A stretch of 40,979 nucleotides of DNA from Minisyncoccota bacterium. GTDB taxonomy: Bacteria > Patescibacteriota > Minisyncoccia > UBA6257 > 02-FULL-45-10c. The notes below the pieces were generated by a model, which saw only the letters and a program-made list of their open reading frames with translations, did not search any database and was not told where the DNA came from. Positions within the stretch are counted from its first letter, which is position 1. Each line of letters starts with the position of its first letter. The DNA lies in contig JAQUPE010000006.1 of assembly GCA_028716745.1 (NCBI GenBank), positions 1-40,979 on the forward strand, given 5' to 3'. Shown piece by piece: positions 1,496 through 32,562 of this stretch. Made by a program: the position numbers and the translations under genes.

Positions 1496-3001
1496 TTATC
1501 GGCAAAGATGCTCTCCGCCCAAAACTTTTGCGTAATGTTCGCCTATTTCTCCTCCGCATGCACCACTGCCAACCGTACATCCGCCATTTGTAAGAGCTGT
1601 ATTAAAGATAGCAACCTCATCTATTTTTCCATTAATATATCTTCCCGAACCAAAAGTAGATTTTCCTATCAGCATAGTAACTGTTGAATGATCAAGGGGC
1701 AACGCAGTATTTATAACTAAATCCGCTTCTCCATTTACATATCCGATAAATTTGCTGCCATCATAAGTAAATGCAAGATAATACCACCGGCCAGTTTCTA
1801 AAGTATGAGAACCACTGCCGTCATAAGTTCCAACGGCTGGATCTTCTACATACATAGCTAATTTTCCGTTAGATTTTATAAGCAAAGTAAATCCTTTACC
1901 GCTTGATTCTTTGGCGACAACTGAATTATAAGATTCCGTATAGCCATTAATATAAACCCAAGCTTCAAATGTCATATAAGGAGAAGGACTCAAGCTAGCA
2001 TCATGAGGCACGCTGATATAATCACCTCCGCCATCTAAACTAAAAGCATTGCCGACTATTCCGGCTCCGCCCGCCGTTGCATTGTCCTGCAACGTTCCCT
2101 CATTAGTTCCATAATAATCCGTAGCATCTCCTTCTCCCTGCCAATAAGAAACTAAGCCATCTGTATTTCCTGATCCGCACGATAATACCGCTTTACATTC
2201 CCCTCCGAAACAATAATCTGATGAACAATCCCCATCCACCGAACAAGCTAATCCTTCGGCGCATGGATCGCAGATGTCTCCTCCGCAATCTACATCTGTT
2301 TCATCCTGATTTTTTTCGCTGTCTATGCAACTATCAGGAGCAGCTAATGTCCAAGCCTGATTTGCAATAAGATTTCCGCCGCTTCCAATTTCAAATCGCG
2401 TAGAAGTCGCCCCGCCATCATTAACAGCGTTGTCTGCGAGGAATTTAGCTGACTCTATGCCTGCAGATAGAGCCCAGGAGCCTTTGACGTATGTATAGTA
2501 GAGTCCGCCTGTGGCTGTGTTGGTGGGGTCTATAGGTAAAGCTGCAAATAGAGATCCTGCTGAGGTTTGGACTTGGGTGAAGTCTACGGGGATCCAGCCT
2601 GTGCCATCTATCTTTCTGTAGTTAGTAGATGTCTTGCAGGCATAGGACCATCCTGCTGGGAGAGCTGCTAGTCCGAGGTCTGAGCAGTCTGCTGCGTTAC
2701 TAGGTAGAGATATATATACGGTATTGGCTGTGCCGGTTAGGGTGTAGTTATATGATTGAAATAGACCTATGGCGCTGTTTATTGTTTGGAGATCTGAGAG
2801 TCTTTGAGCGTCTCTAGCTTGTCTGTTTAACTCTGTGGGGTTGATTACTAATATAGTTACTGTGGCTAATATAGCTAGGATGCCTAGGACGACTACGAGT
2901 TCGACGAGGGTGAAGGAGGATTGGAGGTATTTGGAGACGCGGACTGTTCTTTTCCTGCAAAAAAATAAACGAGGAAAATAGAAAGTTATTAGCCTTATCA
3001 T
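1496..3001 (-). CDS. LamG-bearing type IV pilin-like protein (minor pilin/adhesin)
   Basis: A 501-aa protein. A prepilin N-terminus (SSFTLVELVVVLGILAILA, mature residue Phe30, Glu at +5) is followed by a CPR pilin middle domain (TGWIPVDF..ALPIDP, to about residue 215). Next comes a Cys-rich linker with nine cysteines (residues about 222-275, ETDVDCGG..CDPC..DCSSDYC). A LamG/concanavalin-like domain follows (LVSYWQGEGDATDYYG to VAIFNTAL) with an odd Gly/Cys-rich C-terminus. The leader is long (29 aa), and residue -1 is Ser, not the usual Gly. The first ~570 bp differ in codon use (CTA, AGA, CTC) and strand skew from the LamG half. They are closely related to the same part of the gene at 31,282-32,562. 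A TATAAT lies 9 nt before the ATG. Probable role: a minor pilin displaying a carbohydrate- or protein-binding domain. Confidence 0.85.
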   Translation of the reverse strand: MIRLITFYFPRLFFCRKRTVRVSKYLQSSFTLVELVVVLGILAILATVTILVINPTELNRQARDAQRLSDLQTINSAIGLFQSYNYTLTGTANTVYISLPSNAADCSDLGLAALPAGWSYACKTSTNYRKIDGTGWIPVDFTQVQTSAGSLFAALPIDPTNTATGGLYYTYVKGSWALSAGIESAKFLADNAVNDGGATSTRFEIGSGGNLIANQAWTLAAPDSCIDSEKNQDETDVDCGGDICDPCAEGLACSVDGDCSSDYCFGGECKAVLSCGSGNTDGLVSYWQGEGDATDYYGTNEGTLQDNATAGGAGIVGNAFSLDGGGDYISVPHDASLSPSPYMTFEAWVYINGYTESYNSVVAKESSGKGFTLLIKSNGKLAMYVEDPAVGTYDGSGSHTLETGRWYYLAFTYDGSKFIGYVNGEADLVINTALPLDHSTVTMLIGKSTFGSGRYINGKIDEVAIFNTALTNGGCTVGSGACGGEIGEHYAKVLGGEHLCR

Positions 3002-5341: not shown

Positions 5342-5347
5342 TTTACT

Positions 5348-5393: not shown

Positions 5394-5399
5394 TATAAT
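5394..5399 (+). promoter_or_regulatory. -10 hexamer of the lactate permease gene
   Basis: TGC-TATAAT (extended -10), 10 nt before the ATG at 5410. The expected leader is about 3 nt, and no SD is present. Confidence 0.55.
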
Positions 5400-5409
5400 A
5401 AATTAATAA

Positions 5410-7436: not shown

Positions 7437-8261
7437 ATGATAAGAGAATCGGAGGTCGTAGAGAAAATCGTGTTCGACGTCTTAAATGACGGCTTGAGCG
7501 CGAGAGCAAAGAAAAAGCTCAGGGAAAGAATCATTTCTGCGTCCCGGCCGTTCATCAGACACATTTCCCGCCGCTATGATTTTGGCGTGGTCCCCAAGGA
7601 GGACTTGATCGCGCATGGAGAGGTGGGAGCGCTGGAGGCGCTGGAGAAATTCCGTCCTGAGCTCGGCTACAAGTTCACGACTTTCGCCGGGTATTACATA
7701 AGGAAAGAGATGCTGAAGGCCATAGGCCTGTTTTCCAGAGACATCGTATTGCCAGCGTGGATACTCGATGAAATCAGAAAACTGGAAAAGACCAAAAATC
7801 TGCGGCGACTGAATTTCGCCGAAGAAGAAAGGCTTTACCAGCTCATGGAGTTCCTGGCTGAAAGCAAGACGATATCCCTAGATACTCCCTTCAGGGATTC
7901 CGACTACTACAAGTTCGGATTTGGCCTGATCGACAGGGAGGATGAGGAGCTGGACACGGAAGAGCTGGAGTCTCTGAAAGAGATTCGCTTTACCGACGTC
8001 CTGTCCGACAAGACAAAAGGCATCGAGACCATCCTGGAGGAAGAAGAGATCAAAAGATTCTTCCGCAAAGCCAAACAACTGCCCGAAAAGGAGAGGGCTG
8101 TTGTGGCAATGAGATTCGGTTTCGAAGATGGGAAATTTCACCTCATCTCCGAAATAGCGGAAGAGCTTGGCTTCTCCGAAGGAACCGTGTCCAGGCACCT
8201 CAAGAGAGCCCTGGATCATCTCGGATGGATTCTCTGCAGGAAGTACCTGTGCATCCGTTAA
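7437..8261 (+). CDS. RNA polymerase sigma factor, sigma-70 family
   Basis: A 274-aa protein. Region 2 is visible as HISRRYDFGVVPKEDLIAHG and ALEKFRPELGYKFTTFAGYY (about residues 37-95). A region-3-like acidic linker follows. Region 4 is at about residues 205-262, with LPEKERAVVAMRFGF and the helix-turn-helix ISEIAEELGFSEGTVSRHLK. Region 1.1 is absent, as in alternative sigma factors. Codon use favours AAG, GAG, CTG and GTC, and G+C is visibly higher than in the flanking genes, which use AAA, GAA and TTA. It also has a textbook promoter and SD and ends at a GC-rich terminator. These signs point to recent transfer, or to a gene under different expression constraints. Its regulon is unknown. Confidence 0.85.
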   Translation: MIRESEVVEKIVFDVLNDGLSARAKKKLRERIISASRPFIRHISRRYDFGVVPKEDLIAHGEVGALEALEKFRPELGYKFTTFAGYYIRKEMLKAIGLFSRDIVLPAWILDEIRKLEKTKNLRRLNFAEEERLYQLMEFLAESKTISLDTPFRDSDYYKFGFGLIDREDEELDTEELESLKEIRFTDVLSDKTKGIETILEEEEIKRFFRKAKQLPEKERAVVAMRFGFEDGKFHLISEIAEELGFSEGTVSRHLKRALDHLGWILCRKYLCIR

Positions 8262-8266
8262 CAAAA

Positions 8267-8297
8267 GGCCCGCATTTACCGCGGGCCAATTTTTTTA
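8267..8297. terminator. Intrinsic terminator between the sigma-factor gene and nrdJ
   Basis: GGCCCGC pairs with GCGGGCC around an ATTTACC loop, followed by AATTTTTTT on the plus strand and TTTTGTT on the minus strand. It serves two convergent genes. Confidence 0.85.
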
Positions 8298-8298
8298 T

Positions 8299-10536
8299 TT
8301 ATTTATCGCATCCTCCAGCTACGCAAGCCAGTTCATGAGAACCCTTGCTCTCGTCTTCTTTTTCATAAAGCAATATCTGAGCAAAATCTATAGTCGGTAT
8401 TCTGGAAACCAAGTCCTGATAAACTTCTTTGCTTATTTCTTCATAAGGAGCCAGTGCATAGGCATGATCTTCCTTGGGCAAGAAAGAAAGTCCTCCAACC
8501 ATATCCCAATTTTCATAAAGCCAATGCGCCACCAAGAGCCACTCATTTTCCCCTACTGTAATTGTTACGGAAGGATTATGTTCGGTAAAGCTTGTTTTAA
8601 CCAGCTTCCAATATTCAAGCTGCTCCAAAGCGGTAAAATCTTTTCTAAAATTAGAATCGGACGGCGCCTTGATAGGAAATTCCAAAACGTAAGTTGTCGC
8701 GGTATCAAGAGTCTGTCCAACTTCAGGATAATAAGGAACTTTTTGATCCCTTAACATTCTGAACAAGCTATCCGTAGCAGAGATACGAACTCTCCTAATA
8801 TAATACGGCGCATAACGAGAATGCAGTCCCGAAGCCGCATCTACCAGCTGCGAAACTGTTCCTGACGGCTTAACGCAGGTTATGGCGCGCGCAGCATTAA
8901 TTCCAAACCTTTTTGCATAAACTTTATTAACCGCAATCGCCTCTTCTCTCATCGCTTCCAAAGTTTCTTTTTTGCGCACTACATCGCAATCCCATTGTCC
9001 GGTGATAGAAACCCCGAGCAATCTTTCGTCCTCGCAATTCTTTTTCCATTCTTTTGAAAGATATTGGAAATTGGTAAGAGTTGCCTGATAGGTTCCCAAA
9101 ATAGTCGCTAAACGGACTTTTTCCAATAATGTCTTTTTAGTTTCTCCGTCCCGCGCTATAACTTCCGTAAGATTGCAGAACTCTTTTGATTTCAAAATAA
9201 TTTCTCCGCAAGGGTTAGTTCCTGCCGTAGCCACGTCTTTTTCGAAGCCCTTCCAGCGGCGAGCCGGCATTTGATATTTAAGTCCTCCGCGATTCAAAAG
9301 ACCCCTTTCTCCTGTTCCGCTTTTAGCCAAGGCCATCCATTCATCCAAAAACTGGACTGAGCCCGGCTTCTCGCTGTAAGCGGTAGAATTATTGGCCATG
9401 CTTCTCTGCGGTTCAGTAAGATAGAACTGACCCTTTTTGCAATCGCGCATCTCCTGATCGTCCAAATCGGAAAGAGACAAAAGCGCGCTGCGGCGAACCC
9501 CTCCCATAACAACTACTTCTCCTATTTTGCAAATAATGTCATGAACATCCAGAGACGTCAGTCTTCTTCCTTGCCTCGCCAAAATTTTTCTGCGGCAAAA
9601 ATCCAAAACTTGCCTTAATGGTCCCGGACCGGCGCTCTTCCCGCCCATAGTTCTTAAGCGCGAACCGGCTGGACGGATTGTTGAATAATCAAAAGACACA
9701 TCTTTCCCGTCAAACCACGCTTCCATTCCGGCAAGCAAAGCATCTGCCCATCCCTCTTTGCTGTCCTCTACAGGTACTGGAGCCAATTTTTTTCCTGTCT
9801 GGCGTTTTATCTGAGGCAATTTTTGAACCGTTTGCTGCTCAACAGAAAAACCGACTCCTGTTCCGCACATTAAAATATATAAAATTTCCGCAAAATCTCT
9901 CAGTTTTGTCGGCGCAATAAAAGAACAATTATATGCGGCTACATTGCTCTTTCTCGCTGCCGGACCGGATGCCCACATGAGTCTCATTGAAGGCATTACT
10001 TCCTGTTTCAAAATTGCTTCGTGCAATTCCTTATATTCTTCTTCCTTTATCTTGTCTCCCATATTCTCTTTCATGAAATCCATATAGCGCTGGACAGTTT
10101 CAATCCAGGTCTCTCTCCTGTTTTCATCCTCTATCCAACGGGCGTAAGAACGATAATAAACAAACTCCGCGAGAGCGTTGCGGAAATATTTTTTGCTTTG
10201 ATCAGCCAATTCTTTTACGCGTTCAGGAATTTTTCTTGATTGTTCCCTTAGCCTGCCTCTTTCCTGGCGATAAAGAATATATGCCTTTGCGGCCTTAGGA
10301 AAATCAGCCAAAATAGTTTCCTGCTCAACAATATCCTGTATGCCCTCAACCGTAGGGATGTCGCGGCCGCCGGAATACTTCTTTTCCATTTCCTTAACAA
10401 CACGGTCGCAAACTTTCTCCGCATCTTCTTCTGTTCCCTCGGAAGCGGCGATCATCGCCTTTAAAATAGCTGTTGTAATTCTGCTTTTATCAAAAGGAAC
10501 TACGTTCCCCTCTCTTTTTCTTATTGATTTAATCAT
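8299..10536 (-). CDS. nrdJ: Adenosylcobalamin-dependent (class II) ribonucleotide reductase
   Basis: A 745-aa single-chain enzyme of the ribonucleoside-triphosphate reductase (RTPR) type. An N-terminal ATP-cone (residues 1-92) is followed by the 10-stranded barrel. Expected residues are Cys204 (YNCSF), Cys443 and Glu445 in NPCGE (thiyl radical site), and Cys454 (FCNLTEV). The C-terminal redox pair is Cys738 and Cys743 (CVAGGC), spaced as in the Lactobacillus enzyme. It makes deoxyribonucleotides independently of oxygen but needs coenzyme B12. The ATG overlaps the ftsZ stop by 4 nt (ATGA), so translation is coupled to the division gene. No B12 synthesis genes are seen here. Confidence 0.93.
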   Translation of the reverse strand: MIKSIRKREGNVVPFDKSRITTAILKAMIAASEGTEEDAEKVCDRVVKEMEKKYSGGRDIPTVEGIQDIVEQETILADFPKAAKAYILYRQERGRLREQSRKIPERVKELADQSKKYFRNALAEFVYYRSYARWIEDENRRETWIETVQRYMDFMKENMGDKIKEEEYKELHEAILKQEVMPSMRLMWASGPAARKSNVAAYNCSFIAPTKLRDFAEILYILMCGTGVGFSVEQQTVQKLPQIKRQTGKKLAPVPVEDSKEGWADALLAGMEAWFDGKDVSFDYSTIRPAGSRLRTMGGKSAGPGPLRQVLDFCRRKILARQGRRLTSLDVHDIICKIGEVVVMGGVRRSALLSLSDLDDQEMRDCKKGQFYLTEPQRSMANNSTAYSEKPGSVQFLDEWMALAKSGTGERGLLNRGGLKYQMPARRWKGFEKDVATAGTNPCGEIILKSKEFCNLTEVIARDGETKKTLLEKVRLATILGTYQATLTNFQYLSKEWKKNCEDERLLGVSITGQWDCDVVRKKETLEAMREEAIAVNKVYAKRFGINAARAITCVKPSGTVSQLVDAASGLHSRYAPYYIRRVRISATDSLFRMLRDQKVPYYPEVGQTLDTATTYVLEFPIKAPSDSNFRKDFTALEQLEYWKLVKTSFTEHNPSVTITVGENEWLLVAHWLYENWDMVGGLSFLPKEDHAYALAPYEEISKEVYQDLVSRIPTIDFAQILLYEKEDESKGSHELACVAGGCDK

Positions 10537-16665: not shown

Positions 16666-17193
16666 ATGCATTACAAGATTGTCGTCGGCCTCGGAAATCC
16701 CGACAAAAAATATGAAAAAACCTATCACAACGCCGGTTTTCTGGCCATCGATTTTTTGACCAAAAACAACAGTGAAAAATGGCAAACCGCCTCCTCAAAA
16801 GATTTCGAGTATTTGAAAACAAATGGATTAGTTTTTGCTAAAACGCTTGTTTATATGAACGAATCCGGCAAAGCGTTGAAATCAATAATTAAATATTTTA
16901 AGGCAGATCCAAAAGACCTGTTAATTGTTCATGACGACTCGGATATTGTTTTGGGAAACTATAAGCTCTCCAATAATCGCGGCGCAGCCGGACATCATGG
17001 CATAGAAAGCGTTCAGCAACATATAAAAAACAATGATTTCGGGCGTTTAAGGATCGGTATTAGGCCAATGCCAAAAACAGACACAGCCCGAAGGGTGAAA
17101 GCGGAGGAATTTGTTCTCAAAAAAATATCCCGCCCCAGCATGGCAATATTAGAAAAAACTTTTCAAAATATTTCCAAAGAATTATTTAGTTAG
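16666..17193 (+). CDS. pth: Peptidyl-tRNA hydrolase
   Basis: A 175-aa enzyme recycling peptidyl-tRNA. It has VVGLGNP (Asn11), catalytic His21 in YHNAGF, the MNESG asparagine, the HDDSD aspartate and RGAAGHHGI. The length is close to the usual 180-195. Its 3' end overlaps the pilMN 3' end by 12 bp (convergent), with no terminator between them. Confidence 0.95.
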   Translation: MHYKIVVGLGNPDKKYEKTYHNAGFLAIDFLTKNNSEKWQTASSKDFEYLKTNGLVFAKTLVYMNESGKALKSIIKYFKADPKDLLIVHDDSDIVLGNYKLSNNRGAAGHHGIESVQQHIKNNDFGRLRIGIRPMPKTDTARRVKAEEFVLKKISRPSMAILEKTFQNISKELFS

Positions 17194-18696
17194 CTTGAAA
17201 GATAAAGTAAAGGTAACGCTCCCGTCGGAATTAGCTGTAATTCCGGATAAGGGCAATAAAACGTCCTTGAAATTTTTGTTGTCGGCAACATTATTCTTAA
17301 AAACAATAGCTTTTTCTTCCGAAGTGGCAGTGGCTATAATTACCAGCGCTTTTGCCGGAGAATCAAAAGAGAATCTTTGTATGGTAATATTGTCCCCTGC
17401 GAGAGCCCAAATGCTTTCTATAAACGATGAATATTTATTAGATTTTGATTTTGCCGCCAAAGCCTTGCTTATCAACTGATTGAATTCCTGCGCTTTCTTT
17501 TGCAAGTCAATCACCTCCTTATTGTCTTGATGCAGCGTAATTGTAGAAAAATCTCTTTCCAAGTTGCTTGATATGGTCGCCAAAAGCCTATCGCTGAAGA
17601 AAAATACTAAAAGTAAAAAGCAGAACGTTGTTAAAAGAGCATTCCTCCAAATTTTTACAAACGACAAAATTTGCTCCTCCAAAAATCTTTCTTCGGTTCC
17701 GATGGCCATCAAGCTTATAAAAAAATCTTTGGACCTAGGAATTATGCCTCTTAAGGCGCTGCCTAAGGCGGCAAACCAAATCGCCGGCATTTCGGCAAAA
17801 TGATTTTCTAAAACAAGCGGCTGCGTATTAAGAGTTGGAAAACCTTCCTTTAAAATTTTTATTACTTCCTGCTGAAGACCGCGCGATACCAAAATAAGGT
17901 CTCCGACCTGATCGTTCCAATGGCTGCTGTAAAAAGTAAGAATTTTTTTAACCTCCTGAATAATAATGTTCTTAAACATCTCCTGAGACACCTGCCTTTC
18001 TTGTCCTGAAATCCACGGCACAAAATAGTGAAAATATAATTTGCCATTTCTAACTATTAAAAAATTCAATCCTTCGGTCGATAAATTCATAGCCACATAA
18101 GGCCTATTTTGATCTATGCCCACCCCCTTTTCTTTTATCAAACGAGCTATTGATAGGCTGGAAAACTCGACTGCAACCGTCCTAAAACCCGCCTGCTTAA
18201 ACGCCGAAACATAATCTTCTATAACCTGTTTATTTATAAAAGACCCTAAAATTTCCAGTCTTTCGCCCTCTTTCTTGGAGTCTCCCACTTTTTCCCAGTC
18301 AAAATAAGCGGTCTTAATATCTATCGGAGATATAAGCTGAAGATTTAGCGCCGCCGCTTCTTGTATATGCTTTTCACTAGTTATCGGAGGAAGATTGAAT
18401 GATTGAGTATAGACATGATTCGGCGGAATCGAAGCAATAATACAAACTTTGTCGTCCGCTTTGCTAATTCCAACTTGCCTTCTGATTTGTTCCAATGCCT
18501 CGGCAAACTTGGCGCCATTTTTTAATTTTCCGTCTTCAATAATTCCGGGCGCCAAAGAAATACTGGCCTTTTTAAAATCTCCATCGCTCAAGACTACATA
18601 ATTTACCGAAAATTCGCTGATGCTTAATCCTCCGATAACCGGCTGAGGATTTATTAATTTCAATAATTTTTTTAAAACAGAATTAAAATCCATCAT
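17182..18696 (-). CDS. pilMN: PilM-PilN fusion, T4P inner-membrane assembly platform
   Basis: A 504-aa protein. The N-terminal ~340 residues have the actin-like PilM fold (IGGLSISEFSVNYVVLSD; MNLSTEGLNFLIVRNGKLYF; LVLENHF before the end). One membrane span follows (about residues 350-372, LLTTFCFLLLVFFFS). A PilN-like region comes after it, with coiled coil and a small alpha/beta domain (ITIQRFSFDSPAKALVIIAT). The arrangement resembles GspL, in which cytoplasmic and periplasmic parts are one chain. Separate pilM and pilN genes are usual, and no PilO is seen. It is the last gene of the T4P cluster. ATG codons at 18696 and 18693 are both possible starts. Confidence 0.8.
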   Translation of the reverse strand: MMDFNSVLKKLLKLINPQPVIGGLSISEFSVNYVVLSDGDFKKASISLAPGIIEDGKLKNGAKFAEALEQIRRQVGISKADDKVCIIASIPPNHVYTQSFNLPPITSEKHIQEAAALNLQLISPIDIKTAYFDWEKVGDSKKEGERLEILGSFINKQVIEDYVSAFKQAGFRTVAVEFSSLSIARLIKEKGVGIDQNRPYVAMNLSTEGLNFLIVRNGKLYFHYFVPWISGQERQVSQEMFKNIIIQEVKKILTFYSSHWNDQVGDLILVSRGLQQEVIKILKEGFPTLNTQPLVLENHFAEMPAIWFAALGSALRGIIPRSKDFFISLMAIGTEERFLEEQILSFVKIWRNALLTTFCFLLLVFFFSDRLLATISSNLERDFSTITLHQDNKEVIDLQKKAQEFNQLISKALAAKSKSNKYSSFIESIWALAGDNITIQRFSFDSPAKALVIIATATSEEKAIVFKNNVADNKNFKDVLLPLSGITANSDGSVTFTLSFKLTK

Positions 18697-18873: not shown

Positions 18874-19314
18874 TTACAGCGCTACCTCCTTCATGGACTC
18901 AGACGTTATCTGTCCGGTATTTGGATTAACGGCAATAACAGCTTCCATTTTTTTCTTCCTAGTAAAAGAGGTTCCTATTGAAGAAATTTTATATTTCCCG
19001 CTGCCGCCGCACTCTGCCGTATCTTTACAAATAACAACAAACGCGCTCGAACGCTTTCCGATATTGCTGATTGTATATCCGCTAGACGTAAAAGACTTAT
19101 CTCGAGACAAGCGCATAATTCCGTCCTGAATTCCAGCCTTAGCGGCGCCAAGAGATTCTGCCGACAATCTAACGCCATAATCGGTTTTGTTTAAGTAATA
19201 AGCTCCTGCCGTGACAATCAATGCGGTATCAAAAACTGCTCCGCCTAAAATTAAAAGTGTCGGCAGCGCCGCTATTCCCATTATTCTCTTTTTTGTGAAC
19301 AATTTTTTAAACAT
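18874..19314 (-). CDS. PilX-like minor pilus protein, putative
   Basis: A 146-aa protein. A basic start (MFKKLFTKKR) and one hydrophobic segment (about 13-40, MGIAALPTLLILGGAVFD) are followed by ESLGAAKAGIQDGIMRLSRD, a pattern seen in PilX/GspK-type proteins. A beta-rich tail includes a Cys pair (CKDTAEC). The prepilin site is not clear. It starts 2 nt after the LamG pilin-like gene, within the T4P cluster. I infer a minor pilin or priming-complex component. Confidence 0.55.
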   Translation of the reverse strand: MFKKLFTKKRIMGIAALPTLLILGGAVFDTALIVTAGAYYLNKTDYGVRLSAESLGAAKAGIQDGIMRLSRDKSFTSSGYTISNIGKRSSAFVVICKDTAECGGSGKYKISSIGTSFTRKKKMEAVIAVNPNTGQITSESMKEVAL

Positions 19315-19316
19315 TT

Positions 19317-21416
19317 TTATAAACTGTAATTTACCGTAACGTCCGTAACTGTCGGAGTTTGGTTTCTCGCCGCGTTGGTACTCAAGAAAATTTTATATCT
19401 GAAATATCTGTAGTTATAACAATTTTTGACCGTAAATAAAGTCGGAATATCAACAAGGGCTGAGCCGGAACTTGGATAATAAGTGGAATCGGTTCCGTCA
19501 TAACCTTCGAAATTCCACGGGCCGGTAGAGCTATTTGAAGTCGCAAATTGAAACCTTACCGTAGTTCCCGAAGGCAAAGTGCCCTGGTACATAATAGAAT
19601 TGAAAGCAACGCCGCCAGTACGCTCCGTATCAAAAGTGCTTGATTCCAAATAGCCAGTCATTGTATTCGGGGTCCAGGCATTTTTAACTTTATAACTCAC
19701 TCCTGGAGTAACACATCCATTTGTTTCTGCATTGGCACAATTAAAACTAATCCAGCCGACAATATCATTCCACGCCCATCCGGAAAATTCTCCATTGGTA
19801 TCAATAACAACTTTATAGTTAGAGTGAACGCAATTATCTGTGGTATCGGCGCAGTTAAAACTTATCCAGCCAATATTATCGTTCCAAGCCCAACCGCCAA
19901 GCGTTCCGCCATCGTTTGTTACCTTCCAATTTCCCGCTCCTCCGCTGCATATATCTCCATTAGGGGTGGTATTGCAATTGAAGGCAATATTCCCCACCGA
20001 AGAAGAGGCATATCCCTCAAGACGGTTATAAAAAACATTTACATTGTCAGTAGAATAAAGATCCCACCAGCCCATCACATCATTCCACGCCCAGCGATTT
20101 GAAGACTCTATGGTGGTATTTCCACTCGGCGGGGCTTCTTCCTGAGCTTCTAAATCTATTGCTATGGAGCCGCCGGTTCCCGCGTAATCAATAATATTTG
20201 AGCCAAAAAATGTATCTGAAAAATTAGTTATTGGACCCGCAGCTCCGCTTCCCCCGGACCAATCGGTCTGAGTTACAGTAGTATTTACCCAGCGAGTTAA
20301 ATAACCATTTGCATCCACAGAATTACTGACTCCATTTAAGGTCCAAGTTGTGGCAACAGAAACTTTTTGAGTCGACGGATCATCATTATTTACATTATAA
20401 GTTGATTCTATATTCTGGCTGGAATCACGAGAAACATCTTCGATGTAGAAGGAACGGGTATAAATAACGCTGGTATAAATTCTTGAAATTTCTTCGGCGG
20501 ACAAAGCACGATTATAAATACGGACATCATCAAGATTTCCACTAAAAGCACCTGAGCCCGGCCACCTCCCTAATGTAGTTTGATTAATATTTACATCTCC
20601 TAAAGTACTAATATCTGTATTGCAAACATCGGTATTTCCATCTATATAACAACGTAAACGACCGGCTGACGCATCACGAACTAACGCAAATAAATGCCAA
20701 TTATTATCGGCATAATTTCCAGAAATGGTCGGCTGAAAACTGTTAGCATTTTCATCTCTGACATAAGCTCGCAGTGTTCCACCGGAAAACATACCTGTCA
20801 CAGCACGAGAATTCCCACCATTTATTTGATTTATAAAAGAAGCGTTTGTTGCCTGTCCGGCAATATTAGTTTTAAACCAAACAACTTGCGAAAAAGAATT
20901 TGTTCTTGGATTTAAATTGCCCTCTAATCCAATATCAACATAATCATCTGAGCCATCAAAACTTATACATTTCCCTGCCTTACAGCCGCTAGAATCAACT
21001 CTTGTTGGGCTATTAACTAATGTTCCTTTGTGATTTTCTCTCGAAAAATCTTGGGCAATATTGCCACTTCCTTCATCAAATTTCCAATAACCTATTAATC
21101 CATCAACAATATCGTTATGTATAATACTTTCTTCTCCCAAAACCGCTATTGTCGTTGTCGGAGTCTGTACAAGAAAATATTTATTATTTATTCCCTTTAA
21201 AAGAGAATGCGTATTTTCCCAATATGCCTCAGTCATCAGCACCACTTTGTCATAAAGAGCATTTGCATAAGAAGCAGCTGTCTGGCTTTGGTCGGTTGTT
21301 TTTCCGGCCCTAGAAGCAAGCATAATACCGCCGGTCGTAGCGCCGATCATAACCAAGCTAACACCCAGGCCGAGAGCCAATTCAATTAAAGACTGCCCCT
21401 TATTTCTCTTTGGCAT
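19317..21416 (-). CDS. Pseudopilin with an internal LamG domain and GWAWN repeats
   Basis: A 699-aa protein. The prepilin start is KG-QSLIELALGLGVSLVMIG, with Glu at +5. A short pilin helix leads to KYFLVQTPTTTIAVLGEESI, after which a complete LamG domain is inserted (GLIGYWKFDEGSG to IYNRALSAEEISRIY, about residues 106-315). The pilin-type sequence then resumes as VIYTRSFYIEDVSRDSSQNI. The C-terminal part has three W-A-W-N-D-x-x-G-W units (DNA about 19735-19785, 19853-19895, 20068-20097), each linked to a Cys-bearing FNC segment. It is a minor pilin/adhesin candidate. It has a TATAAT 8 nt upstream of the ATG. Confidence 0.8.
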   Translation of the reverse strand: MPKRNKGQSLIELALGLGVSLVMIGATTGGIMLASRAGKTTDQSQTAASYANALYDKVVLMTEAYWENTHSLLKGINNKYFLVQTPTTTIAVLGEESIIHNDIVDGLIGYWKFDEGSGNIAQDFSRENHKGTLVNSPTRVDSSGCKAGKCISFDGSDDYVDIGLEGNLNPRTNSFSQVVWFKTNIAGQATNASFINQINGGNSRAVTGMFSGGTLRAYVRDENANSFQPTISGNYADNNWHLFALVRDASAGRLRCYIDGNTDVCNTDISTLGDVNINQTTLGRWPGSGAFSGNLDDVRIYNRALSAEEISRIYTSVIYTRSFYIEDVSRDSSQNIESTYNVNNDDPSTQKVSVATTWTLNGVSNSVDANGYLTRWVNTTVTQTDWSGGSGAAGPITNFSDTFFGSNIIDYAGTGGSIAIDLEAQEEAPPSGNTTIESSNRWAWNDVMGWWDLYSTDNVNVFYNRLEGYASSSVGNIAFNCNTTPNGDICSGGAGNWKVTNDGGTLGGWAWNDNIGWISFNCADTTDNCVHSNYKVVIDTNGEFSGWAWNDIVGWISFNCANAETNGCVTPGVSYKVKNAWTPNTMTGYLESSTFDTERTGGVAFNSIMYQGTLPSGTTVRFQFATSNSSTGPWNFEGYDGTDSTYYPSSGSALVDIPTLFTVKNCYNYRYFRYKIFLSTNAARNQTPTVTDVTVNYSL

Positions 21417-21424
21417 TTAATTAA

Positions 21425-21430
21425 ATTATA
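21425..21430 (-). promoter_or_regulatory. -10 hexamer of the internal-LamG pseudopilin gene
   Basis: The reverse strand reads TGA-TATAAT (extended -10), 8 nt before the ATG at 21416. Confidence 0.5.
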
Positions 21431-21465
21431 TCACAAATAAAATTAAATCAGGGCAAACTTGTGCA

Positions 21466-22590
21466 CTATTTTCCGTTATAATAAGCGGCATATATTTCCG
21501 CAGGAGAAAGAGCACGGCTATATATAGCAATTTCGTCTAAATTTGCTTCAGTCGAAGCAGAGCCAGCGCTTCTTGATCCGATAAAAAGACCGTTTGCCGA
21601 AGTATTTATTGTTCCGCTGCATCCAGACTGGGTTCTAACCAAAGAACCATCTATATACAATTTATTATCAGCGCCATCATAAGTTGCCGCAAAATGATGC
21701 CAACCATTTAAAAGACTGGCATAACTTACACCGGGGTTTAAACATGTACCGCCTGTAGTGTAAAAATAAATTTCAAAAGTTGAAGAATAAAAATTAACTA
21801 TAAAAGAAGCTCCTCCTCTGCTTACAACTGTGTGATGCCCAGCCGCATTACTTGTCTTATACATCCAACCCATTACAGTCATATAACTTACATCAAATAC
21901 ATTAGTGGCGTCTGAAACATATAGAAAATCATCTATTCCATTAAACTGCCCTGCATAAGTTCCAACTTTCCCGGCAGTATAATGAGTTCCAGATCCATTC
22001 CATGTTCCGTCAACTCCCATAAAAGTACTGGTCGCTGTTAAACCACCGCCTTCGTCAAATTTCCAATAACCAATTAAGTCGTGCGTCGATGGCAAATAAC
22101 AATTTGAATGAAGCGTAATATTTCCGTATGAATTTATTTCTAAAATTTTACATGAAGTTAAAGTGCCGGTCAGACTCATAGAAGTCGTAGTTGCAGAAAC
22201 GGGATATCCGGTAAGCCGTTCAAAAATAATTTCTTTAACTTCCCCTTGCGGAGGATCGGTAAACTCAACTTTTTGGTCAACGTCAATCATGCTACTCATT
22301 ACCCCATCGGCAAAACTGTCTCCATAAAAAATTTTATAATAATCTTTTGCCCCAGAAACTGCATTTATATAAATTCCCCAATCGCTGCTCTCTTCTTGAG
22401 AAACCGCGTTTTGCTGAGCAACGCGCAAATTGCCGAGCATGCTAAGCGCCGCTTCATCCAACTTCACGCGCCCCTGATAATTGGTCAAGCTATAAGCGGC
22501 CATGCCGGTTGAGATAGCCATCAGTCCGACATAAAGCAAAACTTCCACAAAAGTCATCCCAAGCTCTCTTTTATTTTTCATTTTCTGCAT
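21466..22590 (-). CDS. GspH/FimT-like pseudopilin with C-terminal LamG domain
   Basis: A 374-aa protein. Prepilin leader MQKMKNKRELG is cleaved before MTFVEVLLYVGL (Glu at +5). The helix and FimT/GspH-type body (LGNLRVAQQNAVSQEESSDW; residues to about 165) are followed by LamG (LIGYWKFDEGGG to IYSRALSPAEIYAAYYNGK). The LamG C-terminus has the usual YSRALSPAEI ending. The leader also has an internal ATG at codon 4, which could be the real start. It lies between pilC and the 699-aa pseudopilin gene in the T4P cluster. Confidence 0.82.
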   Translation of the reverse strand: MQKMKNKRELGMTFVEVLLYVGLMAISTGMAAYSLTNYQGRVKLDEAALSMLGNLRVAQQNAVSQEESSDWGIYINAVSGAKDYYKIFYGDSFADGVMSSMIDVDQKVEFTDPPQGEVKEIIFERLTGYPVSATTTSMSLTGTLTSCKILEINSYGNITLHSNCYLPSTHDLIGYWKFDEGGGLTATSTFMGVDGTWNGSGTHYTAGKVGTYAGQFNGIDDFLYVSDATNVFDVSYMTVMGWMYKTSNAAGHHTVVSRGGASFIVNFYSSTFEIYFYTTGGTCLNPGVSYASLLNGWHHFAATYDGADNKLYIDGSLVRTQSGCSGTINTSANGLFIGSRSAGSASTEANLDEIAIYSRALSPAEIYAAYYNGK

Positions 22591-22618: not shown

Positions 22619-23827
22619 TTAAATATTTCCTACTAATTGATACATCGGAACAATAATAGCCAAAGCAATAGCGCCGATAATTAAACCTATAAATAAAAGC
22701 AGTACCGGCTCCAAAAAAGAAACCAAGCTTTTTACCATTGAATCAATTTCTGATTCATAAAAGTCGGATATTGTTTTTAAAATATCTTCCGTATGGCCAG
22801 CTTTTTCCGAAACTGCGATTAAATTGCTTATAACCGAAGGAAAAGCCGGCTCTCGCCTAAAAGCCTCACCAATAGTCATTCCCTTAGCCACTCCTTCCCG
22901 CGCTATGCGCTGCAAGCTTTCTCTAAAATCATCATTACCCACCGCACCAGCAGTAATTTCCAGCGATTCAAGAATCGGCAAACCAGACCTCATAAGCAAA
23001 GAAAGCGTAGAGGCAAATCTCTGCAAGGCCATTTCTTTTAAAACGCTTCCTAGCGCTGGGACTCTGGTTAAAAGACGAAATAAGACTTTTCTTACAATCA
23101 CAACCTTTGAAATCAATGCCCAAAGGCTCAAAACTAAAGCGACGAAGCCAATCATTATCACAATTCCATGCGCGTTCAAAAAAAGGCCTATTGTGAAAAC
23201 AATTCGGGAGAAAGTCGGGATCTCAAAGCCAGAATTAGTAAAAACCGCCGCAATTTTAGGCAAAGAAAAAGTAACCATCAAAATAAGAATTACCAAAGAT
23301 ATGCTGAGCAAAATAATCGGATATACCAAAGCTGAGCGGACTTTATTTTTTAATTCCTGTTCTTTTTCCAAAGCAGTGCTTAAATTAACAAGCACTGATT
23401 CAAGATTTCCTGATGATTCTCCCGCCTTTATCAAATTTATAAAAACCGGAGAAAAATACTTCTCGTACTTCATAAAGGTGGAATAAAAAGGCTGTCCTTT
23501 TTCTAAATTACTTTTTATTTCAATTAAAACTGCCTTCAACGCCGGCCTATTTAAATCCTGAATTAAAATATTTATAGCCTTAAATAAATCTGTTCCCGCC
23601 CGTAACATCAATGCGAGATATTTTGTAAGAAAAACTTTGTCTTCTATTGTTATGCTTTGTCCAAAAAATGTAATTGCCTTTCCCTCCCCGGCTCTTGCCA
23701 ATCTAATTGAAACAGGCCTCAGCCCTTTTGCAGACAAAGCCGCTAAAGCCTCGGCAGTGCTTCCAGATTCAATTTCTCCTTCCGCTATTTTTCCTCTTAT
23801 GTCCGCGGCTGTGTATCTAAATTTCAT
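22619..23827 (-). CDS. pilC: Type IV pilus inner-membrane platform protein PilC
   Basis: A 402-aa T2SF-family protein. It has two homologous helical domains (FLTKYLALMLRAGTDLFKAI and FASTLSLLMRSGLPILESLE), each followed by membrane spans. A final span at the C-terminus is LLFIGLIIGAIALAIIVPMY. It forms the platform turned by PilB. It starts 18 nt after the pilB stop, but the gap holds its own TATAAT exactly 6 nt before the ATG. Confidence 0.94.
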   Translation of the reverse strand: MKFRYTAADIRGKIAEGEIESGSTAEALAALSAKGLRPVSIRLARAGEGKAITFFGQSITIEDKVFLTKYLALMLRAGTDLFKAINILIQDLNRPALKAVLIEIKSNLEKGQPFYSTFMKYEKYFSPVFINLIKAGESSGNLESVLVNLSTALEKEQELKNKVRSALVYPIILLSISLVILILMVTFSLPKIAAVFTNSGFEIPTFSRIVFTIGLFLNAHGIVIMIGFVALVLSLWALISKVVIVRKVLFRLLTRVPALGSVLKEMALQRFASTLSLLMRSGLPILESLEITAGAVGNDDFRESLQRIAREGVAKGMTIGEAFRREPAFPSVISNLIAVSEKAGHTEDILKTISDFYESEIDSMVKSLVSFLEPVLLLFIGLIIGAIALAIIVPMYQLVGNI

Positions 23828-23845: not shown

Positions 23846-25549
23846 TTACTCTCGAATAACCCTCAGCACTTCTTCCAATGTCGTCATTCCCAATTCCGCC
23901 TTTCTTAGTCCATCTTCAAACATTGAAATCATGCCTTGTTTTCGTGCCAGATTTTTTAAATTATCCAATGTAAACTCGGGGCCTACGATTAATTTTCTGA
24001 TTTCTTCGGTTACCTCCAGCACCTCATAAATACCCATTCTGCCTCTGTAGCCGCTGCCTCCGCAAGCCGGACAACCCTTGCCCGCATACAAAACTTGCGG
24101 CAATTTATAAGTCGTATCGATTTTTAATTCCTTGAGCTGCCTTTCTATTATTATCTGAACATCTTTCGGCGCAGTTATGGAATAAATGCATGATGGACAC
24201 ACTTTTCTCACCAGCCTCTGAGCCACAATTATATTAAGAACCGCCGCCACCAAAAACGGCACAATATTCATATCTACCAAACGAGGAATTGTTGTTGTGG
24301 CATCGTTGGTGTGCAAAGAAGATAGAACCAAGTGACCAGTTAAGGCAGACTGCACGGAAATGCCGGCTGTCTCTTCGTCGCGGATTTCACCGACTAAAAT
24401 TATGTTCGGATCTTGCCTCAAAATAGAACGCAAACCGTTGGCAAAAGAAATTCCCGCCTGCGCATTAATCTGCGTTTGATTTACATATTTAATATCGTAT
24501 TCGATAGGATCTTCAACTGTAACTATATTTACCTCCGGCTTATTCAACATGTTCAACAAAGAATACAAAGTCGTTGTTTTACCGGAACCGGTAGGACCGC
24601 AAACCAATACCATGCCGTAGCTTTTTTTAATATTTTCATAAACTATCTTGCTCATATCGTCCAACATGCCAAGTTCCTGAAGAGACAAAGGACGCTGGGC
24701 AGAAGCCAAAAGCCTCATTTCCACCTTCTCTCCATAATAAGTAGGAATAATTGAAACACGGATATCCAGCACATCATTGCCTATCTTAACGCGGAAACGT
24801 CCGTCTTGCGGCTTATAATGTTCGTCGATTTTTAAATTTGATAAAAGCTTTACGCGCGCGACAATCGCCGCATGAACTTCTTTCGGAATTTTAACTACTT
24901 CATGCAAAACACCGTCTACCCTGTAACGGATTAAAATTCCATCTTCAAATATTTCAAAGTGAATATCAGATGCTCTTGAAGAAAATGCGTACGAGACCAA
25001 AGTATCAACTATGGCCACTATCGGAACTTCTGCCGCCGCCTCCTCTCCTCGCTTTCCAAGACGCAAAGACTCATTAATATTTGCCTCAATAATTTTCTTG
25101 AAATTTTCGGAAAGACGAAGGCCATACATTGCATATCCCTTATTTAAATCTCCTTCTTGCGCGAGAAACGGCCTCACTTTTCCTTTAAGATAGCTCTCTA
25201 AAAATCCTATTGTTTCCAGGTTTCCCGGATCTTCCAATGCCACATCAAAAGAACCGTCGGGTTCTTTATTAAAAGATATGGCTCTTTTCTGCCTGGCTAT
25301 TTCCTCAGGCAATAATTTTAAAACTTCCTCGTCAATCGGCCGGCGGCTAAGATCAACTTTCTCGACGCCAAAATAAGAAGAAAGAAGATCATTAAAATAG
25401 GTCTGGCTGATTATCCCGCGGGATATTAACATGTCGGCGATTTGATATCCCTTCCTTTGAGCCTCTACCGCCACGGCATCAAAATTAGGCTCAGCTATAA
25501 GCCCCTCTTTAATGAGAATCTCCTTTAATTTTTGATCTGGAATTTGCAT
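23846..25549 (-). CDS. pilB: Type IV pilus extension ATPase PilB
   Basis: A 567-aa GspE/PilB ATPase. The N-terminal MshEN-type domain covers about 1-150. Walker A is GPTGSGKT (318-325), the Asp box TVEDPIEY (344-351), Walker B NIILVGEIRD (382-391) and the His box GHLVLSSLHTN (405-415). The zinc tetracysteine motif is Cys451, Cys454, Cys493 and Cys496. It powers pilin polymerisation. No retraction ATPase PilT is present in the window. Confidence 0.96.
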   Translation of the reverse strand: MQIPDQKLKEILIKEGLIAEPNFDAVAVEAQRKGYQIADMLISRGIISQTYFNDLLSSYFGVEKVDLSRRPIDEEVLKLLPEEIARQKRAISFNKEPDGSFDVALEDPGNLETIGFLESYLKGKVRPFLAQEGDLNKGYAMYGLRLSENFKKIIEANINESLRLGKRGEEAAAEVPIVAIVDTLVSYAFSSRASDIHFEIFEDGILIRYRVDGVLHEVVKIPKEVHAAIVARVKLLSNLKIDEHYKPQDGRFRVKIGNDVLDIRVSIIPTYYGEKVEMRLLASAQRPLSLQELGMLDDMSKIVYENIKKSYGMVLVCGPTGSGKTTTLYSLLNMLNKPEVNIVTVEDPIEYDIKYVNQTQINAQAGISFANGLRSILRQDPNIILVGEIRDEETAGISVQSALTGHLVLSSLHTNDATTTIPRLVDMNIVPFLVAAVLNIIVAQRLVRKVCPSCIYSITAPKDVQIIIERQLKELKIDTTYKLPQVLYAGKGCPACGGSGYRGRMGIYEVLEVTEEIRKLIVGPEFTLDNLKNLARKQGMISMFEDGLRKAELGMTTLEEVLRVIRE

Positions 25550-26233: not shown

Positions 26234-26827
26234 CTATAAATCCAAATCTGCGTCTGTTCCCACTTCATAATAACTGACTGAATTGCCTCCGTCCCCCGTT
26301 TCTTTATCTTGGTCTCCTCCGGTTTTATAACGATTACTCTCTATGTCCGCATCTAATTCAAAAGTTTTTTCTGTATTATCACAGGCATAAGAATAAAAGT
26401 AGGTAGTGTCATTAACCGGATCTATAGGCAGCGCCGAAATCGGCGATCCGCCGCTTGAATCAATAAACCTTACCGGTATCCACCCGGCACCATTTACGCT
26501 TCTGAGGGGTATCACAGTCGAAGTTTTTCCAGGATGTCTTCCTCCGCAGCTTGCGGCTGTTTCAGCTACATATGTAAAACAAAGGCTTGAGCATCCTACA
26601 TAAGTTCCATCCAAATCTGTTGTTGAAGCAGTTGATAGATAAAAAGAAAGCGCATTGCCTATATTGGTTAAATCGGTAAATCTCTGCGAATCGCGCGCCT
26701 GCCTAAAAAGCTCAACCGGATTCAATACTATAAGAGTCGCAGTGCTGAGAACAACTAAGATACCAATAACAACGAGCAGCTCTACTAATGTAAAACCGCG
26801 TTTTTGCTTTTTTTGAAAACTATCCAT
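26234..26827 (-). CDS. Type IV pilin
   Basis: A 197-aa prepilin. Leader MDSFQKKQKRG is cleaved before FTLVELLVVIGILVVLS (Glu at +5). The globular part has the CPR pilin motifs GAGWIPVRFIDSSGGSPIS and ALPIDPVNDTTYFYSYACD, and four-plus cysteines. It ends YYEVGTDADLDL. It is a close paralogue of the next pilin (26,941-27,522) and shares the core with the two LamG pilins. It could be a major or an alternative pilin. Confidence 0.9.
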   Translation of the reverse strand: MDSFQKKQKRGFTLVELLVVIGILVVLSTATLIVLNPVELFRQARDSQRFTDLTNIGNALSFYLSTASTTDLDGTYVGCSSLCFTYVAETAASCGGRHPGKTSTVIPLRSVNGAGWIPVRFIDSSGGSPISALPIDPVNDTTYFYSYACDNTEKTFELDADIESNRYKTGGDQDKETGDGGNSVSYYEVGTDADLDL

Positions 26828-26940: not shown

Positions 26941-27522
26941 TTAGAGGTCTAATCCAGGATCATTACCTACTTCATAAACCGATGAGGAGCTTCCTCCATC
27001 TGTTGATTCTTTATCGTTCGCGCCGCTGCTGGCATAACGAGTGCTTTCCATGTCCGCGTCTAATTCAAAAGTTTTATTTGTGTTGTCGCAAGCATAGGAG
27101 TAAAAAAGATTGCCGCTGCTTGAAGGATCTGTCGGCAAAGCCGAAATAGGAGCACCGCCGGTAGCCATGTTAAAATTGACGCCAATCCAACCGCTCTGAT
27201 CAACAGCCCTAGAATTTATTCCTTGGCTTGTTCCAGAGTGCCTGCCCAAACAGTTCGCTGCCTGTGTGTTTCCATAATTGAAACAGTTAGAGCAAGAACC
27301 TGTCGAACCATACATCTGAGTCGTTGTGGCAGTAGAAAGATAAAGAGAGATGGCGCTGTTCAATGTTGATAAATCAGAAACTCTCTGTGAATCGCGCGCC
27401 TGAGCAAACATCTGCGCAGGATTTAATACTAATAAAGTAACTGTAGCCAAAATAGCTAAGATACCGAGAACGACGACTAGCTCAACTAACGTGAAACCTC
27501 TTTTAAGTTGTTTTGTGTTCAT
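26941..27522 (-). CDS. Type IV pilin, probable major pilin
   Basis: A 193-aa prepilin. Short leader MNTKQLKRG, mature start FTLVELVVVLGILAILATVT, Glu at +5. The body has four cysteines near residues 75-90 (SCSNC and AANCLG), then GAPISALPTDPSSSG and the terminal YEVGNDPGLDL. An extended -10 promoter and a dedicated terminator flank it, the arrangement expected of a highly expressed structural pilin. It is the first pilin gene after the response regulator. Confidence 0.9.
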   Translation of the reverse strand: MNTKQLKRGFTLVELVVVLGILAILATVTLLVLNPAQMFAQARDSQRVSDLSTLNSAISLYLSTATTTQMYGSTGSCSNCFNYGNTQAANCLGRHSGTSQGINSRAVDQSGWIGVNFNMATGGAPISALPTDPSSSGNLFYSYACDNTNKTFELDADMESTRYASSGANDKESTDGGSSSSVYEVGNDPGLDL

Positions 27523-31281: not shown

Positions 31282-32562
31282 TTATTTGGTGGCGTTGTAG
31301 AGAGCCAGAATTTCCGCGGCGGAAAGAGCGCGGTTATAAAGCCTCATCTCATCAATAATGCCGTTGAAAAAACGCGTGCTATTAATCAGCGATCCAACGG
31401 ACATTGTATTGGTAACGCTTCTTAAAGTTTTAGTTTGCGCCGTACTATTATCATAAGCTCCATTAATATAAATCGTTACGGCTGAGCCGTTATAGGTTGC
31501 TGCTATATGATACCAATTTCCAGTTCCATCTGTTACCGCCGAAACACTGTGTAATGATGTTGCGCTATTATCTGTATAATCAGTCTGAACAAAAGCATAA
31601 TTACCTGTATAATTCCAACCAAGCTTATAATAATCATAAGAATCTTGAATGCTAAAAATATTATTATCGGCTCCATCACTGGTCCCATGGCCTTCTATAT
31701 ATACCCAAGCCGCCATAGTAATTTTATTAGTACTTAAGCTCACGCTTGGACTTGCTTTGTTAACTGAATCATTTGATCCATCAAAATCTAAAGCTCCTCT
31801 TTGTTTACTAAAATCTGTCCAAACAGGAACACTGGCAAAAGTTAAATTATTTCCAATACCGCTCACATCATAAACAGTCGTTCCGCTCCCCTCATCAAAT
31901 GTCCAATAGCCGATAAGGGATGAATCTCTTTTGTATTCTTCAACTGCTGTAGGGGTTAATGTGAGAGTTGTTCCTACTTCAAAGCTGGCAATGGATGTTC
32001 CTCCGTCTGTCATGGATGCGCCTCCGTTTACGCTGGAGAACTTTTCTGATTCTGCTCTGGCTGTCATCTCCCATGAGGCTCCGGTTACATATGTGTAATA
32101 ACCGTCTGCCAATGTGTTGATTGGATCTATAGGTAAAGCAGCAAACATCTGGCCTACTGTGGTGGAGACAGATGTGAAGTTAACGGGTATCCAGCCTGTT
32201 CCGTCTACCTTGCGGTAGTTGGTAGCTGTCTTGCATGAGTAGGTCCAGCCTGCAGGTAGGGCTGGGAGGGCATATGAGGCACAGGTGGATGAGTTATCGG
32301 GGAGAGATACATAGACTATATTAGCTGTTCCATAGCTTGTTCCCTCTACGGATCTGTAGAGTAATAGAGCTTTATTGATTGATTCTAGGTCTGAGAGTCT
32401 CTGGGTATCTCTGCTTTGTTTGAAGAGTTGATCTGGTCTGACTACTAATAGAGTTACTGTGGCTAATATAGCTAGGATGCCTAGGACGACGACGAGTTCG
32501 ACTAATGTAAATGATGATCTGTCTTTAATAATAACTTTAGTTAGCCGAAAATCTATTTTCAT
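31282..32562 (-). CDS. LamG-bearing type IV pilin-like protein (second copy)
   Basis: A 426-aa protein. Prepilin start DRSSFTLVELVVVLGILAIL, with Ser at -1 and Glu at +5. The CPR pilin middle domain (LPALPAGWTYSC, GTGWIPVNF, MFAALPIDPINTL) runs to about residue 205. The LamG domain runs from LIGYWTFDEGSGTTVYDVSG to LYNRALSAAEILALYNATK. It is the same architecture as the 501-aa protein at 1,496-3,001, without its Cys-rich linker. The first ~570 bp share an unusual codon and strand bias with that gene. It lies 17 nt after the transglycosylase gene. Confidence 0.87.
   Translation of the reverse strand: MKIDFRLTKVIIKDRSSFTLVELVVVLGILAILATVTLLVVRPDQLFKQSRDTQRLSDLESINKALLLYRSVEGTSYGTANIVYVSLPDNSSTCASYALPALPAGWTYSCKTATNYRKVDGTGWIPVNFTSVSTTVGQMFAALPIDPINTLADGYYTYVTGASWEMTARAESEKFSSVNGGASMTDGGTSIASFEVGTTLTLTPTAVEEYKRDSSLIGYWTFDEGSGTTVYDVSGIGNNLTFASVPVWTDFSKQRGALDFDGSNDSVNKASPSVSLSTNKITMAAWVYIEGHGTSDGADNNIFSIQDSYDYYKLGWNYTGNYAFVQTDYTDNSATSLHSVSAVTDGTGNWYHIAATYNGSAVTIYINGAYDNSTAQTKTLRSVTNTMSVGSLINSTRFFNGIIDEMRLYNRALSAAEILALYNATK

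What the first reader, a model, noticed from the sequence alone, without database searches (positions are those of the whole stretch)
19317..22590. LamG domains built into pseudopilins of the T4P cluster
Two adjacent cluster genes encode prepilins with LamG domains, and two more LamG pilins lie at 1.5 and 31.3 kb. LamG folds bind sugars or proteins. Four such pilins in 40 kb suggest a pilus tip or shaft decorated with different binding domains, as expected for attachment to a host cell.
Basis: partly seen in the sequence, partly recalled or inferred. Interest (0 to 1): 0.75.

Follow-up and report, generated by a model that had tools for sequence, protein, structure and literature searches.

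The report
Lectin-like domains on pilus-tip pilins
Two proteins predicted to sit at the tip of this tiny bacterium's pili carry sugar-binding-type (LamG) domains, and the genome holds about twelve more pilins in which a nearly constant pilin stalk is joined to ever-different LamG heads, which looks like a swappable set of grappling hooks for surfaces or host cells.

Summary
All four named genes encode LamG (PF13385) domains with E from 6e-21 to 7e-29 on pilin-type N-termini. The pair at 19317-22590 sits inside a pilB-pilC-...-pilMN operon. Comparison with relatives sharpens the picture. 21466-22590 is a GspH/FimT-like minor pilin with LamG grafted at its C-terminus. 19317-21416 is a PilV-like minor pilin with LamG inserted into the pilin head, then fused to a WNDxxGW-repeat protein that is usually a separate neighbouring gene. 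In relatives these two operon slots carry nothing, LamG, tandem LamG, FN3/DUF1554, Fib_succ_major or an NHL propeller. The genome has 14 LamG genes, all on pilins. About twelve share related pilin parts (93-100% DNA identity in the closest group, starting at the mature +1 codon) but LamG parts only about 25-40% identical. Tree tests against a sister genome show that pilin and LamG histories conflict, and that one LamG has moved between a tip pilin and the repertoire. Lectin-type modular pilins are known (S. sanguinis PilC), so this is a new variant of a known kind. Ligand, host and tip location were not tested. The constant-stalk/variable-lectin repertoire is the most novel part.

The parts
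22096..22590 (-). GspH/FimT-like minor pilin domain (res 1-165), leader MQKMKNKRELG| then MTFVE (Glu5 present)
   Evidence: alignment A2 with non-LamG orthologues of about 152 aa; TIGR01708 GspH E 1e-4, below its cut-off; AlphaFold2 lollipop, helix 14-63, pLDDT 86-98 over most of res 11-160
21475..22083 (-). C-terminal LamG (ConA-like lectin) module of the GspH-like pilin
   Evidence: PF13385 E 1.5e-22; predicted beta-sandwich; PDB hits include AbnA domain 4 (TMt 0.71) and S. sanguinis PilC 7oa7 E 2.8e-6
21117..21416 (-). N-terminal half of PilV-like minor pilin (res 1-100), G|QSLIE
   Evidence: alignment A1; homologue L056 hits TIGR02523 PilV at 20 bits, below cut-off 52
20475..21116 (-). LamG module inserted in the pilin head (res ~101-314)
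   Evidence: PF13385 E 5.8e-21; absent as one clean gap in LamG-free relatives, with flanking pilin columns conserved on both sides
20172..20474 (-). C-terminal half of the PilV-like pilin head (res ~315-415: YTRSFYIEDVSRDS..DDPSTQKV..YLTRW..DWSGGSG)
   Evidence: invariant columns F323, R330, D346, S348, T349, W386, G388 in A1
19320..20129 (-). WNDxxGW-repeat module (res ~430-699); a separate adjacent secreted gene in most relatives
   Evidence: sequence of relatives L052-L060; G001 match 63% identical as a separate ORF; no Pfam or NCBIfam match
18874..19314 (-). small pilin-like K subunit candidate; GIAALP..., no Glu5
   Evidence: conserved at this place in relatives, Glu5 absent there too; lack of Glu5 is a mark of K subunits (PMC9934059); no family hit
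17182..18696 (-). PilM (N-part) with a PilN-like C-part
   Evidence: PF11104 E 1.4e-8; the PilN-like part is inference
22619..23827 (-). PilC platform protein
   Evidence: PF00482 E 1.9e-50
23846..25549 (-). PilB assembly ATPase
   Evidence: PF00437 E 1.5e-122, MshEN
26234..26827 (-). type IV pilin without extra module, candidate major pilin
   Evidence: PF07963 E 1.3e-7; 43% to the repertoire pilin part
26941..27522 (-). type IV pilin without extra module, candidate major pilin
   Evidence: PF07963 E 1.4e-7; 47% to the repertoire pilin part
1496..3001 (-). repertoire gene: constant pilin part (2351-2914) + LamG (1589-2035)
   Evidence: PF13385 E 6.9e-29, N_methyl; 569 bp of pilin DNA 93% identical to a copy on C5
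31282..32562 (-). repertoire gene: constant pilin part (31969-32511) + LamG (31309-31779)
   Evidence: PF13385 E 2.4e-26, N_methyl; 93% DNA identity over 440 bp to the copy on C11

Best explanation
The operon builds a type IV pilus whose minor-pilin tip complex (H-, V/I- and K-like) displays carbohydrate-binding-type modules. LamG is appended to the H-like pilin and inserted into a head loop of the V-like pilin, which also carries the WND protein. A separate set of about twelve genes supplies extra pilins with a near-constant stalk and different LamG heads, which could be exchanged into the filament or its tip. Recombination within the shared stalk DNA moves LamG modules between stalks, including to or from the tip pilin. 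The likely job is to recognise varied glycans on host cells or surfaces. Shown here: domain architecture, operon conservation, interchangeable modules, constant-stalk/variable-LamG structure, conflicting histories. Inferred: tip location, glycan binding, host attachment, co-assembly of the repertoire with this pilus.
For: LamG and pilin domains. Insertion and C-terminal graft shown by alignment to LamG-free orthologues. Module turnover at the same operon slots (LamG, tandem LamG, FN3+DUF1554+endostatin-like, Fib_succ_major, FN3+WND, NHL propeller, none). Lectin-type beta-sandwich predicted. Repertoire: 14 LamG genes all on pilins; 18 pilin-domain matches, six contig ends lie inside the repeat; stalk DNA 93-100% in the closest group versus LamG protein about 25-43%; same pattern in a sister genome and in a third genome of another genus with a 3-contig assembly, stalks 97% and LamG 33%. 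LamG sister pairs across genomes supported 99-100% while the pilin parts reject that pairing at two loci (p-AU 9e-18, 3e-51). The LamG on the sister's GspH-like tip pilin is sister to a repertoire LamG here (100/99); positional pairing of the two GspH LamGs rejected, p 0.001. One prepilin peptidase in the genome. Precedents: PilC of S. sanguinis binds glycans (PMC9934059); PilX2 minor pilin with C-terminal propeller needed for normal host binding in a CPR bacterium (PMC12206443).
Against: No ligand, expression or filament data. H and V assignments rest on sub-cut-off model hits plus synteny; no J subunit was found. The AlphaFold2 model of 19317-21416 is poor in the pilin C-half (pLDDT 30-40), so the insertion rests on alignment, not on a model. 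Repertoire pilins have Ala/Ser instead of Gly before the cleavage site, so efficient processing is not assured. LamG-domain function varies widely in bacteria, and some copies may be non-binding. The sister genome is listed with 7% contamination.
Confidence: 0.62

Rival explanations
1. The modules bind abiotic or matrix polysaccharide (biofilm, sediment, plant or microbial exopolysaccharide), so the pili serve general attachment or twitching rather than host choice.
For: LamG and the other modules found at these slots are generic carbohydrate/protein binders; no host information in the sequence.
Against: The breadth of the LamG set in a 0.66-Mb genome and its turnover between sister species fit many changing targets better than one common matrix. 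This is weak evidence.
Confidence: 0.25
2. Diversification is driven by phages or other predators that use pili as receptors: heads vary to escape, and binding specificity is secondary.
For: Constant stalk with variable exposed head and recombination between copies is the pattern escape variation would give.
Against: Copies inside contigs look like full genes with their own leader, no silent cassettes were seen, and some LamG orthologues persist between species at 67-79% identity, which suggests conserved function.
Confidence: 0.12
3. The filament is a DNA-uptake (Com-type) pilus and the extra domains help DNA capture.
For: Monoderm T4P also serve transformation, and extra modules on large minor pilins such as ComZ have been linked to DNA (discussion in PMC8179133).
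Against: LamG is a lectin-type fold; a second T4P locus with PilT and the prepilin peptidase lies on contig C2 and is at least as good a candidate.
Confidence: 0.06
4. The repertoire is an assembly artefact: repeats collapsed or joined wrongly.
For: Six contig ends fall inside the pilin repeat, so some pairings of stalk and head are uncertain in this assembly.
Against: Nine intact copies lie inside contigs, the sister genome repeats the pattern, and a 3-contig genome of another genus shows stalks 97% and LamG 33% identical.
Confidence: 0.04

Closest known systems
Modular type 4 pilins, N_methyl + PF13385 architecture (Raynaud et al. 2021, PMC8179133)
   Same: Pilin module joined to a carbohydrate-binding-type domain; that survey lists PF13385 among the most frequent extra modules and its 15 representative architectures include several CPR proteins.
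   Different: Here two neighbouring tip-operon pilins carry LamG at once, one as an internal insertion instead of a C-terminal graft, and a paralogous constant-stalk/variable-LamG set exists, which the main text of that survey does not describe.
Streptococcus sanguinis PilC (and the PilA-PilB-PilC tip complex; Shahin et al. 2023, PMC9934059)
   Same: Minor pilin with ConA-like lectin module, proposed tip location, second adhesive pilin beside it; fold match to 7oa7.
   Different: No Ig-like module found here; H/V/K-like rather than PilABC set; PilC did not appear in the PDB sequence search.
PilX1/PilX2 of Nanosynbacter lyticus TM7x (PMC12206443)
   Same: CPR minor pilins with extra C-terminal domains; PilX2 loss lowers host binding.
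   Different: Beta-propeller and jelly-roll-like domains, not LamG; different CPR lineage; not predicted there to have a PilD signal.
HIJK core minor-pilin complex (GspH, GspI/PilV, GspJ, GspK)
   Same: Encoded together; H- and V/I-like pilins, small pilin lacking Glu5 as in K.
   Different: No J recognised; H and V enlarged by lectin-type modules.
PilY1/PilC tip adhesins
   Same: The WND protein is a secreted non-pilin encoded among the tip minor pilins, and is fused to the V-like pilin in at least two lineages (window, L054).
   Different: No PilY1 propeller domain found; a sequence family without a name in Pfam or NCBIfam.

Membership tests
Modular type 4 pilins | Class III prepilin leader with Glu5 and hydrophobic stretch | tested here: met
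   G|QSLIE and G|MTFVE; A1, A2 alignments; Pfam N_methyl below cut-off for this pair
[quoted passage not shown]
   PF13385 in both
Modular type 4 pilins | Processed and assembled into filaments | not testable with these tools
   one prepilin peptidase is encoded; no protein data
LamG / ConA-like lectin fold (PF13385) | beta-sandwich core | tested here: met
   above cut-off; AF2 strands and PDB fold matches
LamG / ConA-like lectin fold (PF13385) | glycan binding | not testable with these tools
   needs a binding assay
HIJK core minor pilins | H-like pilin | tested here: inconclusive
   TIGR01708 GspH E 1e-4, 22 bits against 80 cut-off; position fits
HIJK core minor pilins | V/I-like pilin | tested here: inconclusive
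   homologue L056 hits PilV TIGR02523 at 20 bits against 52
HIJK core minor pilins | K-like pilin lacking Glu5 | tested here: met
   GIAALP... here, Glu5 also absent in relatives; identity as K not confirmed by any family model
HIJK core minor pilins | J subunit in operon | tested here: not met
   no fourth pilin between pilC and pilM
S. sanguinis PilC | Ig-like module between pilin and lectin | tested here: not met
   no Ig hit in 21466-22590
Neisseria-type pilin variation | silent partial cassettes feeding one expressed gene | tested here: not met
   LamG copies inside contigs are full genes with leaders; partial copies only at contig ends

The most novel reading that the evidence does not exclude
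A genome-scale constant/variable adhesin system: about a dozen pilin genes keep a homogenised stalk by gene conversion while exchanging hypervariable lectin heads, including with the fixed tip-complex pilin, so a reduced-genome episymbiont re-tools its pilus binding specificity by recombination.
Probability: 0.45. Interest if true: 0.82.

Novelty: new variant of a known kind. Interest (0 to 1): 0.64.

Why it matters
How ultrasmall CPR bacteria choose and grip hosts is largely open. This gives a concrete, testable set of candidate binding heads (14 in one 0.66-Mb genome), a conserved operon that says which pilins should present two of them, and evidence that heads are traded between stalks, offering a route by which host or surface preference could change quickly.

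Tried and rejected
Silent-cassette antigenic variation: rejected, LamG copies inside contigs are full genes. Simple gene duplication with promoter: rejected for the closest copies, since DNA identity starts at or about 22 bp before the mature +1 codon while leaders and upstream DNA differ. 19317-21416 as a plain C-terminal LamG pilin: rejected by alignment. AlphaFold2 of the whole 699-aa protein on a mixed alignment gave an unreliable pilin C-half, so it was not used for topology. The 699-aa model's best Foldseek hits are the binding domains of clostridial neurotoxins; this is the shared ConA-like sandwich fold at 11-21% identity over partial matches, not a toxin relation. LamG of L011 and its sister-genome counterpart: no conflict with the pilin tree found. 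L003 pilin pairing with its LamG partner: not rejected (p 0.45).

Full report
Observation. The two genes are real and placed as stated. Pfam finds PF13385 LamG in both, and in the genes at 1496-3001 and 31282-32562, with E from 6e-21 to 7e-29. The pair lies on the minus strand in the order pilB (23846-25549), pilC (22619-23827), 21466-22590, 19317-21416, 18874-19314, pilM/N (17182-18696), with gaps of 2-177 bp. Two plain pilins (26234, 26941) and a response regulator precede them.

Anatomy. Relatives were fetched by protein search and their operons read. In Wolfebacteria, Harrisonbacteria, Colwellbacteria and others the same place holds a ~152-aa H-like pilin, a ~210-aa pilin with G|QSLIE, a separate secreted WNDxxGW-repeat protein, and a ~145-aa small pilin without Glu5. 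None of these outgroup pilins has LamG. Alignment A2 shows that 21466-22590 is the H-like pilin plus a C-terminal LamG. Alignment A1 shows that in 19317-21416 the LamG interrupts the pilin head: LamG-free relatives pass straight from GxE... to ..YTRYFYVENVSRD, and conserved columns continue after the insert. The window protein then runs into the WND protein, which is a separate gene in the sister genome (63% identical) and in most relatives, but is also fused in L054. Model hits (GspH, PilV) are weak, so the H and V names rest also on synteny. The third gene lacks Glu5, a mark of K subunits (PMC9934059).

Module turnover. Within the GTDB family, the H-like slot carries LamG (G001), five FN3 with three DUF1554 and an endostatin-like domain (G003, 1248 aa), six FN3 with DUF1554 (G013, 1376 aa), FN3 with WND-like repeats (G007), Fib_succ_major (G014), WND-like repeats (G009), or nothing (G005, G008, G011). 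The V-like slot carries one LamG (G000, G001, G013, G014, G016), two (G003), or none, with an NHL propeller fused in G007. LamG in V-like pilins was also seen in other families of the order (L082, L091, L092) and LamG on H-like pilins in L081 and L085. These slots behave as display platforms.

Fold. AlphaFold2 gives the H-like protein a lollipop (helix 14-63) followed by a beta-rich module, mean pLDDT 80. Foldseek matches lectin-type sandwiches (trans-sialidase, arabinanase domain 4) and the solved S. sanguinis PilC minor pilin. The 699-aa model is good in LamG and in the WND part but poor in the second half of the pilin head, so it does not prove the insertion geometry.

Repertoire. The genome (660,737 bp, 98.3% complete) has 14 LamG genes. 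Eleven show a prepilin N-terminus and three are cut by contig ends inside the same pilin domain. Of 61 genomes searched (this one and 60 relatives), 35 have any LamG; only G001 (15), G000 (14), G003 (12) and G041 (9) have more than seven. A search with one stalk finds 18 copies or parts of copies, six of them at contig ends. In the closest group the stalk DNA is 93-100% identical over up to 569 bp, beginning at or about 22 bp before the TTC codon of mature residue 1, while leaders differ. A 28-bp piece of it occurs eight times without mismatch and once with two, and not at all in the reversed control. LamG proteins of the same genes are mostly 25-40% identical. The pattern recurs in the sister genome (that genome has 7% listed contamination) and in G003, a 3-contig genome of another genus, with stalks 97% and LamG 33% identical.

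Conflicting histories. Four LamG pairs across the two sister genomes are supported at 99-100%. For two of these, the stalks reject the same pairing (p-AU 9e-18 and 3e-51): stalks group within each genome while heads group across genomes. For the three LamG pairs whose stalks can be compared, LamG parts (67-79%) are more alike than their own stalks (55-62%). The LamG on the sister's H-like tip pilin pairs with the LamG of a repertoire pilin here (L005), and pairing it with the H-like LamG of this window is rejected (p 0.001). So LamG modules have moved between the tip pilin and the repertoire, or the stalks have been overwritten.

Interpretation. Type 4 tip complexes with lectin modules bind glycans in S. 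sanguinis (PMC9934059), and a modular minor pilin is needed for normal host binding in the CPR bacterium TM7x (PMC12206443). By analogy the LamG pilins here most likely present glycan-binding heads at or near the pilus tip for attachment to cells or surfaces. Architecture, operon linkage, module exchange and constant/variable structure are shown; location, ligand and host are inferred. Modular LamG pilins as such are known (PMC8179133). A literature search for 'modular pilin' with 'Patescibacteria' found no paper, and the repertoire with module exchange appears undescribed within the library searched; papers outside that library were not seen.

Noticed in passing
L171 (G041:C75) 876-5947, 8256-9077; also G060: In this genus of the same order TGA stands inside genes where Trp is conserved (WND motifs, LVGHWKFDE). 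LamG scores are higher with TGA=Trp (140.5, 76.6 bits) than TGA=Gly (113.1, 65.5): UGA=Trp rather than the UGA=Gly known from other CPR groups.
   Followed up: partly
window:19320-20129: WNDxxGW-repeat protein family, secreted, conserved in the minor-pilin operon of Paceibacteria, fused to the V-like pilin in two lineages, expanded in L063; no Pfam or NCBIfam match. A candidate non-pilin tip component.
   Followed up: partly
window:1496-3001, 31282-32562 and repertoire genes on other contigs: The residue before the prepilin cleavage site is Ser or Ala in the repertoire genes, but Gly in the T4P-cluster pilins of the window.
   Followed up: no
L009, L011, L005, L017, L026 just upstream of the pilin start: Leaders of several repertoire genes contain a GC-rich repeat-like stretch (SHAGGQAS, HAKGQAS), perhaps a REP-type element; not present in the window.
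   Followed up: no
L063: Contig titled Spirochaetia carries a Parcubacteria-type tip-pilin operon; probably misbinned.
   Followed up: no
window:37252-40977: Gene with at least six TIG repeats, FN3 and a C-terminal dockerin type I domain, open at the contig end.
   Followed up: no
L083 and neighbours, G003:C3:464-470 kb: A 2328-aa frame with six or more LamG hits in a relative.
   Followed up: no
G000:C2:90-98 kb (L172): Second T4P locus with PilB, PilT, PilC, prepilin peptidase and four small pilin-like genes, none with LamG; a third PilB-type ATPase lies on C11.
   Followed up: partly
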